Part shown: one piece after another, positions 41,952 through 43,683 of the stretch | Position numbering within the stretch: position 1 is the stretch's first letter | Layout: the number at the start of each line of letters is the position of its first letter | Assembly (NCBI RefSeq): GCF_000473265.1 | Contig: NZ_KI421511.1 | Span: 6,961,909 to 7,025,908, forward strand | DNA length: 64,000 bases | From: Amycolatopsis thermoflava N1165 | Lineage (GTDB): Bacteria; Actinomycetota; Actinomycetes; Mycobacteriales; Pseudonocardiaceae | Reading direction: 5' to 3' | Notes under the pieces: generated by a model | Database searches by the model: none | What the model saw: only the letters and a program-made list of their open reading frames with translations | What the model was told of the DNA's origin: nothing | Program-made: the position numbers and the translations under genes

Positions 41952-42109
41952 CAACACGTTCCGTGCCGATCCGTTGATTTCTCCTCTACCGACGGTGAGA
42001 TGACAACCTGGTGAATCACCTGCCTGGCTGCCTGCACGAAACGGCGAACGCAGGTAACTTCCGAAGTGATGGCTCGTGACCTTGCGGACCATCACGGGAG
42101 GCCCTGGTA

Positions 42110-42196
42110 GTGGCGGTTGTAGAGCAGACGGCGAATGAGCCGTTCGCGATACCCACGAGGGGGCCGGCACCCGGCCCTCGTGGCCCTGCGCGCTGA
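42110..42196 (+). CDS. Short leader ORF upstream of phoH2
   Basis: A 28-codon frame starting at GTG 42110, eight bases after GGGAGG (42096-42101), and ending at TGA 42194-42196. The peptide begins VAVVEQTANEPF and ends with a Pro/Gly/Arg-rich tail. It lies 92 bases upstream of phoH2 on the same strand, and a strong hairpin is formed within its last codons. In mycobacteria a small gene, phoAT, is reported to precede phoH2 as the antitoxin partner. I cannot show homology, but position and signal fit either that role or a regulatory leader peptide. Confidence 0.5.
   Translation: MAVVEQTANEPFAIPTRGPAPGPRGPAR
42153..42183 (+). promoter_or_regulatory. phoH2 leader hairpin with alternative pairing to the phoH2 ribosome-binding site
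   Basis: CCACGAGGG (42153-42161) pairs with CCCTCGTGG (42175-42183), with a further CCGG/CCGG helix and a CAC loop inside. The identical CCACGAGGG recurs at 42270-42278, where its GAGGG is the phoH2 ribosome-binding site. The single complement CCCTCGTGG can therefore pair with either copy. Ribosomes translating or terminating on the leader ORF would disrupt the local hairpin. Confidence 0.6.
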
Positions 42197-42288
42197 CGCG
42201 TAAGCGACAGCGAAGAGCGGACCAGCCAGGGTGGTGCCCGGCCCAGCGAGTGTGGGCGTGGTGCCACGTCCACGAGGGAGATGCCGTC

Positions 42289-43683
42289 GTGACTACGCAG
42301 CGTTCGCCCCGTAAGGCCTCCGGCCGCTCACCGAATTCCGCGGAGGGCACCGCAGAACCCCCGAGTTCCGTGCCAGGGCAGCACACCTATGTCCTGGACA
42401 CCTCGGTTCTGCTGGCCGACCCGTGGGCCATCACGAGATTCGCCGAGCACGCCGTGGTCCTGCCGTTGGTCGTGATCAGTGAACTGGAGGCGAAACGGCA
42501 TCACCCCGAACTGGGCTGGTTCGCGCGGGAATCCCTGCGTCAGCTCGACGACCTGCGGCTCAAGCACGGCCGCCTGGACGCGCCGATCCCGATCGGGGAC
42601 TCTGGCGGCACCCTGCACGTCGAGCTGAACCACTCGGACCCGACGGTCCTGCCGCCCGGGTTCCGCACGGACTCCAACGACCACCGGATCCTGGCCTGCG
42701 CGCTGAACCTCAAGGTCGAGCGCGAGGCGGTCACCCTGGTCACCAAGGACATCCCGCTGCGCGTCAAGGCGGGCGCCGTCGGGCTGCCCGCCGACGAGTA
42801 CCGCGCCCTGGAGGTCGCGCCGTCCGGCTGGACCGGGATGGTCGACGTGGAGGTCCCGCAGGAGGCGGTCGACGCGTTGTTCCGCGACGGTGTCGTGGAC
42901 CTGGCCGAGTACGGGCTGCCCGAGGTGGGCGAATCGCCCTGCCACACCGGCCTGCGGCTGGTGGCGGGTTCCGGCAGCTCGTCCGCGCTGGGCAGGCTGA
43001 CCCCGGCCAAGAAGGTCAAGCTGGTCCGCGGGGACAAGGAGGCGTTCGGCTTGCACGGCCGCTCGGCCGAGCAGCGGATCGCGCTGGACCTGCTGCTCGA
43101 CCCGGACATCGGCATCGTCTCGCTCGGCGGCCGCGCCGGCACCGGCAAGTCCGCGCTCGCGCTGTGCGCCGGGCTGGAGTCGGTGATGGAACGCCGCGAG
43201 CACCGCAAGGTGGTCGTGTTCCGGCCGGTGTACGCCGTCGGCGGCCAGGACCTCGGCTACCTGCCGGGGTCGGAGTCGGAGAAGATGCAGCCGTGGGCGC
43301 AGGCGGTGTTCGACACCCTCGGCGCCCTGGTCAGCCAGGACGTGCTGGACGAGGTGTTCGACCGCGGCATGCTGGAGGTCCTGCCGCTGACGCACATCCG
43401 CGGCCGGTCCCTGCACGACTCGTTCGTGATCGTGGACGAGGCGCAGTCGCTGGAGCGGAACGTGCTGCTCACCGTGCTGTCGCGGCTGGGCACCGCGTCC
43501 CGCGTGGTGCTCACGCACGACGTCGCGCAGCGGGACAACCTGCGCGTCGGGCGCCACGACGGCGTTTCGGCGGTGATCGAGAAGCTGAAGGGCCACCCGC
43601 TCTTCGCGCACGTCACGCTGACCCGTTCGGAGCGGTCGCCGATCGCCGCGCTGGTCACGGAGATGCTGGAGGACCACGGGTAA
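42289..43683 (+). CDS. phoH2: PhoH2: PIN-domain RNase fused to PhoH ATPase
   Basis: A 464-residue two-domain protein. Residues about 33-160 are a PIN nuclease domain (YVLDTSVLLADPW, ISELEAKRHH, SNDHRILACAL, LVTKDIPLRVKA) with its acidic residues kept. Residues about 230-464 are the PhoH P-loop ATPase (GGRAGTGKSALALCAGL, SFVIVDEAQSL). In mycobacteria this fusion acts as an ATP-dependent RNA helicase and RNase and behaves as a toxin. GTG 42289 follows GAGGGAG by nine bases. The 337-base upstream region from 41952 holds no other gene than the leader ORF. The gene is the counterpart of Rv1095. Confidence 0.94.
   Translation: MTTQRSPRKASGRSPNSAEGTAEPPSSVPGQHTYVLDTSVLLADPWAITRFAEHAVVLPLVVISELEAKRHHPELGWFARESLRQLDDLRLKHGRLDAPIPIGDSGGTLHVELNHSDPTVLPPGFRTDSNDHRILACALNLKVEREAVTLVTKDIPLRVKAGAVGLPADEYRALEVAPSGWTGMVDVEVPQEAVDALFRDGVVDLAEYGLPEVGESPCHTGLRLVAGSGSSSALGRLTPAKKVKLVRGDKEAFGLHGRSAEQRIALDLLLDPDIGIVSLGGRAGTGKSALALCAGLESVMERREHRKVVVFRPVYAVGGQDLGYLPGSESEKMQPWAQAVFDTLGALVSQDVLDEVFDRGMLEVLPLTHIRGRSLHDSFVIVDEAQSLERNVLLTVLSRLGTASRVVLTHDVAQRDNLRVGRHDGVSAVIEKLKGHPLFAHVTLTRSERSPIAALVTEMLEDHG

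What the first reader, a model, noticed from the sequence alone, without database searches (positions are those of the whole stretch)
42096..42292. phoH2 leader ORF with an RNA hairpin that can alternatively sequester the phoH2 ribosome-binding site
A 28-codon ORF (GTG 42110, SD GGGAGG) lies before the PIN-PhoH gene. Inside it, CCACGAGGG (42153-42161) pairs with CCCTCGTGG (42175-42183). The same CCACGAGGG recurs at 42270-42278, where it contains the phoH2 SD. One complement therefore has two mutually exclusive partners, and the leader ribosome stops at 42194-42196 next to the hairpin. This looks like translation-coupled attenuation of a toxin-like RNase/helicase. In mycobacteria a small phoAT gene precedes phoH2, but an RNA switch there is not something I know of.
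Basis: partly seen in the sequence, partly recalled or inferred. Interest (0 to 1): 0.8.

Follow-up and report, generated by a model that had tools for sequence, protein, structure and literature searches.

The report
Conserved regulatory RNA leader of phoH2
Just before the gene for the RNA-cutting, RNA-unwinding protein PhoH2 lies an apparently undescribed folded RNA with a short reading frame inside it, kept across many actinobacteria and probably used to set how much PhoH2 is made.

Summary
The sequence facts in the finding are correct, but the proposed switch is not what evolution preserves. The stretch 42055-42291 is one conserved leader: a -10 box, 5' hairpin P1, Shine-Dalgarno GGGAGG, a short leader ORF (very probably translated) containing hairpin P2, a long-range helix PL, and hairpin P3 abutting the phoH2 SD. 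The P2 loop (GGCACC) pairs with the P3 loop (GGUGCC), and this kissing pair covaries (GGCAUC/GAUGCC, GGCGCC/GGCGCC). The leader start is GTG, TTG or ATG in 94 of 95 distinct sites that have an NTG, CTG in one; 5 sites have none. Model R1 finds one copy per genome in 95 of 150 relatives. Model R2 in 148 Actinomycetes genomes gives 51 matches at E<=0.03, all just upstream of phoH2. No Rfam match on the leader. The proposed duplex with the SD recurs but shows no robust covariation. In Mycobacterium the same place holds the 'phoAT antitoxin' ORF, whose protein is not conserved beyond about 11 codons although the RNA is. Best reading: a translation-coupled cis-regulatory RNA. Regulation, direction and signal are untested.

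The parts
42055..42060 (+). -10-like box TAACTT; predicted transcript start about 42066-42068
   Evidence: TANNNT in the 34-nt stretch before GGGAGG in 118 of 119 loci against 31 of 476 background windows; the start itself is inferred, not mapped
42066..42095 (+). hairpin P1 (GTGATGG / CCATCAC plus inner pairs) ending at the leader SD
   Evidence: arms pair within loci far better than between loci: 22.1 against 15.8, sd 0.53, 66 distinct pairs, 0 of 3000 permutations; sequences
42096..42101 (+). leader Shine-Dalgarno GGGAGG, nearly invariant
   Evidence: GGGAGG-type site in 119 of 147 loci; alignments
42102..42107 (+). 5' strand of long-range helix PL (CCCTGG), between leader SD and leader start
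   Evidence: pairs with 42226-42231; all six pairs vary, five of them with changes on both sides, in 91 sequences; 0 of 3000 permutations
42110..42196 (+). leader ORF, 28 codons (GTG...TGA), peptide end TRGPAPGPRGPAR
   Evidence: start GTG 78, ATG 3, TTG 2, CTG 0, none 3 in 86 family loci; reading frame through P2 shared by 65 of 77; stop at the same distance past P2 in 53 of 77
42153..42183 (+). hairpin P2: core arms 42159-42165 and 42173-42179, loop GGCACCC 42166-42172, outer arms 42153-42156 and 42180-42183
   Evidence: core 99.7% paired, outer arms 72.8%; 0 of 3000 permutations
42226..42231 (+). 3' strand of PL (CCAGGG)
   Evidence: changes such as CCCAGG/CCTGGG in L062 and L068
42233..42244 (+). 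segment J (GGTGCCCGGCCC), possible alternative partner of the P2 5' strand plus loop
   Evidence: mean duplex energy -21.9 against -21.5 for permuted partners, 2 of 1000; weak covariation only
42252..42273 (+). hairpin P3 (GTGGGCGTG-GTGC-CACGTCCAC) abutting the phoH2 SD
   Evidence: 7 of 8 counted pairs with changes on both sides, 95.4% paired
42260..42265 (+). GGTGCC of the P3 loop region, complementary to P2 loop GGCACC (42166-42171)
   Evidence: 87 of 99 loci with at least 5 contiguous pairs; 18 distinct P2 loops, 0 of 5000 permutations; 96-99% paired on alignment A5, whose model did not contain this pairing
42274..42280 (+). phoH2 Shine-Dalgarno GAGGGAG
   Evidence: sequence; conserved
42289..43683 (+). 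phoH2 (PIN domain plus PhoH domain)
   Evidence: PF13638 E 4.5e-25 and PF02562 E 1.3e-47

Best explanation
This is a cis-regulatory leader RNA of phoH2. Well supported by comparison, though not by experiment: one transcript unit carrying P1, an SD, a leader ORF, P2 inside that ORF, helix PL, and P3 beside the phoH2 SD, with the loops of P2 and P3 kissing. Inferred mechanism: when no ribosome is on the leader ORF, PL and the P2-P3 kissing complex form, lock the leader SD-start spacer and the region before the phoH2 SD, and phoH2 is OFF. A ribosome on the leader ORF melts the 5' strand of PL and P2, breaks the kissing pair, may let the P2 5' strand pair with J, and phoH2 is ON. What sets the balance is unknown: ribosome supply, or PhoH2 itself binding or unwinding its own leader. 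The direction (leader translation = ON) is about 60:40.
For: Structure: 158 cells changed on both sides against 39 in shuffles, 20 of 31 pairs with such changes, 0 of 500 shuffles (also A1). Kissing loops: 0 of 5000 permutations over 18 distinct loops, and again in a wider set of other families and orders that also holds named members of the window's family (66 of 81 distinct pairs with at least 5, 0 of 2000). Translation of the leader: start codons 70 GTG, 19 TTG, 5 ATG, 1 CTG, 5 none among 100 distinct sites, against 101 CTG of 471 NTG in control positions; frame and stop position mostly kept. One gene only: one match in each of 95 of 150 genomes; in 91 of 93 loci one match each, on the phoH2 strand, 90 of the 91 ending at the phoH2 SD; all 51 R2 matches with E<=0.03 in 148 genomes lie upstream of phoH2. 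Published M. tuberculosis RNA-seq (PMC3207917, section 12 part 1 and passages seen): phoH2 5' UTR of 210 nt, UTR/CDS 4.7 in exponential and 11.9 in stationary phase; the authors say high ratios suggest further candidate riboswitches. This fits OFF when translation is low. The leader ORF overlaps the phoH2 start by 4 nt in some loci (L059, L074, L076; 12 of 28 Mycobacterium loci), as in translational coupling.
Against: No experiment on this organism. RNAfold without pseudoknots did not show the SD freed by leader translation (15 of 66 rose; mean accessibility 0.51 to 0.41), and forcing P2 plus P3 cost 9.7 kcal/mol on average against the MFE (kissing energy not included). Helix PL is unpaired in up to 17 of 90 cells at one pair. 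By my rules 20 of 119 loci lack one of the hairpins or an SD; in the family no P2 was found in L070, L078, L079, L081, L085, L086, L090, L094 and no leader start in L043, L086, L090. In 12 of 99 loci the loops share fewer than 5 pairs. In 10 of 77 family loci P2 is read in frame 0 and in 2 in frame 1. Permutation and shuffle tests do not correct fully for relatedness.
Confidence: 0.5

Rival explanations
1. Autogenous control without a role for leader translation: PhoH2 (RNase and helicase) recognises the P2-P3 kissing fold of its own mRNA and represses or cleaves it; the leader ORF only keeps the RNA open or stable.
For: The RNA accompanies phoH2 and, at E<=0.03, no other gene (51 of 51), as expected of autogenous control. 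The mycobacterial enzyme is reported to prefer 5'-AC[A/U][A/U][G/C] ends (PMC7390352, passages), and such a pentamer sits in 16 of 20 mycobacterial leaders at codons 4-5 (my count on the alignment).
Against: That pentamer does not occur in 42066-42290 of the window. The keeping of a start codon and frame is not needed by this model.
Confidence: 0.28
2. A metabolite riboswitch whose aptamer is P1-GGGAGG-P2-J-P3.
For: Kissing loops and near-invariant stretches (GGGAGGCC; GGCCCANCGAG in the family) resemble aptamers; high UTR/CDS ratio in M. tuberculosis (PMC3207917).
Against: Linked to one gene only, no transport or biosynthesis gene; GGGAGG with a start codon after it is explained as an SD; no Rfam family.
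Confidence: 0.1
3. One reading: the P2 3' arm sequesters the phoH2 SD, competing with the P2 5' arm.
For: 9 contiguous pairs in the window, 8 or more in many Amycolatopsis relatives; 152 uncollapsed pairs gave 1 of 2000; RNAalifold in Mycobacterium pairs the phoH2 SD with GCUCU of leader codons 5-7, a similar idea with another partner.
Against: No covariation in the tests that limit the weight of close relatives (and the 71 representatives); the repeat is lost within the genus.
Confidence: 0.08
4. The leader ORF is mainly a gene for a protein antitoxin (PhoAT), and the RNA conservation is incidental.
For: A review reports that mycobacterial PhoAT binds PhoH2 and relieves its growth effect (PMC4826407, passages); PMC7390352 also says the product interacts with PhoH2 (passages), and PMC8165232 lists the pair among toxin-antitoxin systems (passages). 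The primary 2015 paper was not held.
Against: In 28 Mycobacterium loci with the ORF only about 11 N-terminal codons are shared; lengths run from 13 to 89 codons and the frame changes. Across the window's family the peptide changes while RNA pairs covary.
Confidence: 0.04

Closest known systems
phoAT-phoH2 of mycobacteria (type II toxin-antitoxin by published description)
   Same: Short ORF upstream of phoH2; same gene and position; in some family loci the ORF overlaps the phoH2 start by 4 nt as in 12 of 28 Mycobacterium loci
   Different: In the window the ORF ends 92 nt before phoH2, shows no clear peptide likeness to the mycobacterial one by eye, and lies inside a covarying RNA; the known account concerns a protein antitoxin
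uORF-coupled B12 riboswitches of M. tuberculosis (metE, ppe2)
   Same: Leader RNA with a potential kissing loop and a translated uORF that affects the downstream gene, one negatively and one positively (PMC11260477, passages)
   Different: Those are cobalamin aptamers; no Rfam match here, no known ligand
RepY-RepZ translational control of IncI-alpha/IncB plasmids (recalled, not read here)
   Same: Leader-peptide translation governs a pairing between a distant loop and the region before the downstream SD
   Different: Plasmid copy control with an antisense RNA; pseudoknot activates; no known relation in sequence
Autogenous leader control of ribonucleases, e.g. the RNase E 5' UTR (recalled)
   Same: One RNA element, one RNase gene
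   Different: No PhoH2 binding data; this leader carries a conserved ORF

Membership tests
Rfam family (any of 4227 in release 15) | score at or above the family's gathering cut-off | tested here: not met
   none over the leader at gathering or at E<=10; 7 other loci gave 4 hits at gathering, all ASdes and away from the leader
cis-regulatory leader RNA (general kind) | conserved structure 5' of the coding region on the same strand, supported by covariation | tested here: met
cis-regulatory leader RNA (general kind) | changes expression of the downstream gene | not testable with these tools
   only indirect: UTR/CDS 4.7 and 11.9 for M. tuberculosis phoH2 (PMC3207917)
uORF-coupled leader | upstream ORF with SD and start codon under selection | tested here: met
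   start codon counts and frame conservation
uORF-coupled leader | the upstream ORF is occupied by ribosomes and its translation affects the gene | not testable with these tools
   no ribosome profiling or reporter data
transcription attenuator with intrinsic terminator | GC hairpin followed by a T run before the gene | tested here: not met
   0 terminator-like sites in 41900-42400
T-box or cobalamin riboswitch | match to the covariance model | tested here: not met
   the only window match is a cobalamin riboswitch at 54425-54594, elsewhere
type II toxin-antitoxin pair (PhoAT-PhoH2) | PIN-PhoH protein | tested here: met
type II toxin-antitoxin pair (PhoAT-PhoH2) | conserved antitoxin protein upstream | tested here: not met
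   within Mycobacterium shared only over about 11 codons; between the family and Mycobacterium no clear likeness by eye
type II toxin-antitoxin pair (PhoAT-PhoH2) | antitoxin protein neutralises the toxin | not testable with these tools
   reported in print for mycobacteria (review passages)

The most novel reading that the evidence does not exclude
An undescribed RNA family spanning much of the class Actinomycetes, in which translation of a short leader ORF and a kissing-loop fold at the phoH2 ribosome-binding site are mutually exclusive, so that the cell couples its PIN-PhoH RNase/helicase to translation; the mycobacterial 'antitoxin' phoAT would then be, wholly or mainly, the reading frame of this RNA rather than a conserved protein antitoxin.
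Probability: 0.45. Interest if true: 0.87.

Novelty: new variant of a known kind. Interest (0 to 1): 0.75.

Why it matters
PhoH2 is found in nearly all sampled actinobacteria (150 of 150 relatives had a match; 147 of 148 class genomes, a few of these only to a PhoH paralogue), yet its role and control are poorly known. An RNA kept by compensatory change and found before this gene alone says that the level of this RNase/helicase is probably set at the RNA level, and names the bases to test. It also questions whether phoAT is a protein antitoxin, and offers a possible cause for the abundant phoH2 5' UTR seen by RNA-seq in M. tuberculosis (PMC3207917), left unexplained in the part read.

Tried and rejected
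First-reader duplex with the SD: tested by permutation three ways, no covariation except in one uncollapsed version. RNAfold with the leader ORF masked: no support for freeing of the SD. J as partner of the P2 5' strand: only weak covariation, kept as an option. Leader GGGAGG pairing with J: no variation, uninformative. Terminator and sigma-70 consensus scan: none. PhoH2 target pentamer as autoregulation site: in 16 of 20 mycobacterial leaders (my count), absent in the window leader.

Broken or superseded analyses: one search aligned minus-strand loci unturned (replaced); one search read the wrong field (discarded); one search took a wrong SD in some loci (replaced); one search's references, some cut before P3, were replaced; one search timed out (replaced); one search's arm slice began one base late; three loci (L035, L041, L051) and several P2 ends were mis-picked and were left out of, or corrected in, A4, and at least one GGGAGG pick there (L052) is wrong and stands in the counts. 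The P1 columns of A4 are imperfectly aligned, so R2 is used only for finding copies.

Rows dropped: 147 of the 150 relatives were read (G078, G094 and G095 not fetched). The pattern search missed GGGAGG in 28 of the 147, among them three family loci (L047, L052, L053) that R1 does match. R1 was trained on 47 of these loci and finds them by construction. A4 holds 39 sequences of 203 found. 45 genomes with R2 matches upstream of phoH2 at E<=0.1 are outside the R2 training set by handle, but some named training loci may be the same species as unnamed handles, and named loci repeat some unnamed ones.

Literature limits: ten searches of the open-access library, seen as listings with starts of abstracts. 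Eight bear on this RNA, its gene or its kind and showed no report of it; two served other questions. Papers opened, passages only unless said otherwise: PMC7390352, PMC4826407, PMC8165232, PMC7157823, PMC11260477, PMC8079986, PMC3207917 (this one also section 12 part 1). Subscription papers, including the 2015 phoAT paper, were not readable.

Full report
What was checked. All strings and coordinates of the finding are right. The gene at 42289-43683 carries a PIN domain and a PhoH domain; upstream lies an undecaprenyl diphosphate synthase-like gene. The window lies in an 8.7 Mb genome; its genus appears to be Amycolatopsis, because a same-genus contig (locus L017, G016:C377, 26362 bases) has the length and almost the position of NZ_VJWX01000043.1, A. 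rhizosphaerae.

Relatives. A phoH2-type match was found in 150 of 150 relatives (in G078 only a weak one). I read the upstream DNA of 147 of them. A GGGAGG-type site lies within 420 nt of the PIN motif in 119 of 147.

Anatomy. A TANNNT box lies 35-54 nt before GGGAGG in 118 of 119 loci, against 31 of 476 background windows, so transcription very probably begins just 5' of hairpin P1. P1 ends at the leader SD; its arms pair within loci at 22.1 against 15.8 (sd 0.53) between loci, 0 of 3000 permutations. Then come the leader SD, the start codon, hairpin P2 inside the ORF, the stop, the 3' strand of helix PL, segment J, hairpin P3, the phoH2 SD and GTG. On 91 aligned sequences, 92.8% of cells pair, 20 of 31 pairs show changes on both sides, 158 such cells against 39 in shuffles, 0 of 500, and sliding the partners by one to three columns lowers pairing to 38-53%. 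That alignment was fitted to P2, P3 and PL, but the loop-loop pairing was not in the model.

Kissing loops. Of 119 loci with GGGAGG, 99 have both hairpins by my rules; 20 do not. In 87 of 99 the P2 loop and the P3 loop share at least five contiguous pairs. Over 18 distinct P2 loops the score is 12.9 against 9.9 (sd 0.55) when partners are permuted, 0 of 5000. Compensated examples: L098 GGCAUC/GAUGCC, L087 GGCAUU/GAUGCC, L043 GGCGCC/GGCGCC, L097 GGUAC/GUACC, L080 GGUGCGC/GCGCGCC. In L089 and L093 the two sides look exchanged (P2 loop GGUGCC, P3 GGCAC), but this needs a base of the P3 stem and the script counts only four pairs there. The 12 loci below five are L054, L057, L066, L082, L089, L093, L096, L100, L104, L111, L112 and L122. 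In a wider set (92 loci, 81 distinct; other families and orders, and also named members of the window's family) 66 of 81 reach five and 0 of 2000 permutations do as well.

Leader ORF. In 86 family loci with the SD the codon after it is GTG 78, ATG 3, TTG 2, CTG 0, none 3; P2 is read in the same frame in 65 of 77, in frame 0 in 10 and frame 1 in 2; the stop lies 17 nt (stop included) past the P2 core in 53 of 77. Over 203 of 277 loci of several orders, the first NTG after the SD is G 163, T 27, A 7, C 1, none 5; counting distinct sites only, G 70, T 19, A 5, C 1, none 5, against 101 CTG of 471 NTG in control positions. This is strong evidence that the ORF is translated. The peptide itself drifts, and in L074, L076 and L059 the ORF runs on to overlap the phoH2 start by four bases.

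Distribution. Model R1 (47 sequences) matches once in each of 95 of 150 relatives, 86 of 90 in the family, once at E<1 in the own genome, in 3 of 296 genomes of the phylum sample (strict filters), and in 91 of 93 loci, once each and on the phoH2 strand, 90 of the 91 ending at the phoH2 SD and one (L090) 105 nt before it. Model R2 (P1 to P2, 39 diverse sequences chosen by me) was run on 148 genomes of the class: 69 have a match at E<=1. At E<=0.03 all 51 matches, at E<=0.1 56 of 58, and at E<=1 62 of 83 lie within 400 nt upstream of phoH2 on its strand. 45 of these genomes (E<=0.1) are outside the training set by handle. So the element reaches much of the class and, as far as these searches see, belongs to phoH2 alone. 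79 of the 148 class genomes have no match with this model; some loci, such as L277, L280 and L287, show no such leader by eye.

Mycobacterium. The genus of G121 has a gene upstream that I take for desA (by eye, recalled) and phoH2 next; that it is Mycobacterium is inferred from the likeness of its leaders to named ones. 60 of 60 genomes matched the query; in 58 the best match is near full length, while G440 matched only weakly and G441 in part. I read 30 loci. 28 have the phoAT-like ORF, starting 4-12 nt (my search pattern) after a TAGNGT box; the first 11 or so codons (MASDMLCCPGG and near variants) are shared, but lengths run from 13 to 89 codons, the frame changes, and 12 of 28 overlap the phoH2 start by four bases; L176 lacks the leader and L195 did not fit the search. 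RNAalifold on 20 of them gives 30 pairs, 8 with changes on both sides, pairs of P2 among them, and pairs the phoH2 SD with GCUCU of codons 5-7, which is conserved but does not covary. Named relatives in Gordonia, Williamsia, Rhodococcus, Nocardia and Mycobacteroides chelonae show the same order of parts by eye; M. chelonae has both a GGGAGG-like stretch and the mycobacterial ORF start. So phoAT occupies the place of this RNA. That the protein is an antitoxin rests on published work that I could see only in passages of later papers.

The duplex between the P2 3' arm and the phoH2 SD is present in part in many loci but shows no covariation and in the 71-representative test; an uncollapsed version of 152 pairs gave 1 of 2000, which vanished on collapsing. 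I therefore regard it as a by-product of two conserved GC-rich sequences in most species, possibly real in some.

Mechanism. Leader translation and the compact fold exclude one another by geometry: PL uses the spacer between leader SD and start, and P2 lies in the ORF. Hence a ribosome on the leader must break PL and P2 and the loop pairing that reaches the phoH2 SD. This follows from the anatomy; that it regulates phoH2 is inferred. M. tuberculosis RNA-seq lists phoH2 among genes with abundant 5' UTRs, 210 nt, UTR/CDS 4.7 in exponential and 11.9 in stationary phase; its authors say that high ratios suggest further candidate riboswitches (PMC3207917, section 12 part 1). Fewer full transcripts when translation is slow fits OFF without leader translation, but other causes, including cleavage or decay, fit too. 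RNAfold, which cannot model the kissing pair, did not support freeing of the SD by leader translation.

Known or new. No Rfam family matches the leader or those of seven other loci. The literature searches named under tried and rejected showed no description in the listings. The kind, a uORF-coupled leader RNA, is known, for example the B12 riboswitches of M. tuberculosis where one uORF represses and one is required (PMC11260477, passages). The RNA itself appears to be new.

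Noticed in passing
window 54425-54594 +: Cobalamin riboswitch (RF00174, 97.3 bits), the only Rfam match in the window at gathering.
   Followed up: no
L167-L196, upstream of phoH2: Mycobacterial phoAT ORF: only the first 11 or so codons are shared, lengths 13 to 89 codons, frame changes between species, while RNA pairs are kept; the start codon lies right after the -10 box, as in leaderless genes.
   Followed up: partly
window 42281-42292: ATG CCG TCG TGA: a three-codon frame whose stop overlaps the phoH2 GTG. 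Relatives have ATGCCGTGA or TTGCCGTGA, a whole-codon indel; it lies too close to the SD to be a likely start and is probably spacer.
   Followed up: no
window 42250: An in-frame GTG would extend PhoH2 by 13 residues through P3; I see no good SD before it.
   Followed up: no
L176: A Mycobacterium genome in which the leader is almost entirely missing and the -10 box lies directly before an ATG in frame with phoH2: a natural leader deletion.
   Followed up: no
L245: Record titled Kitasatospora arboriphila whose phoH2 leader looks like Gordonia or Williamsia; the record may be mislabelled.
   Followed up: no
L128 and other f15 loci: One order-level family (f15) lacks GGGAGG but keeps, by eye, a P2-like hairpin with GCAUCC and a downstream GGGUGC, perhaps a reduced form without the leader ORF.
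   Followed up: no
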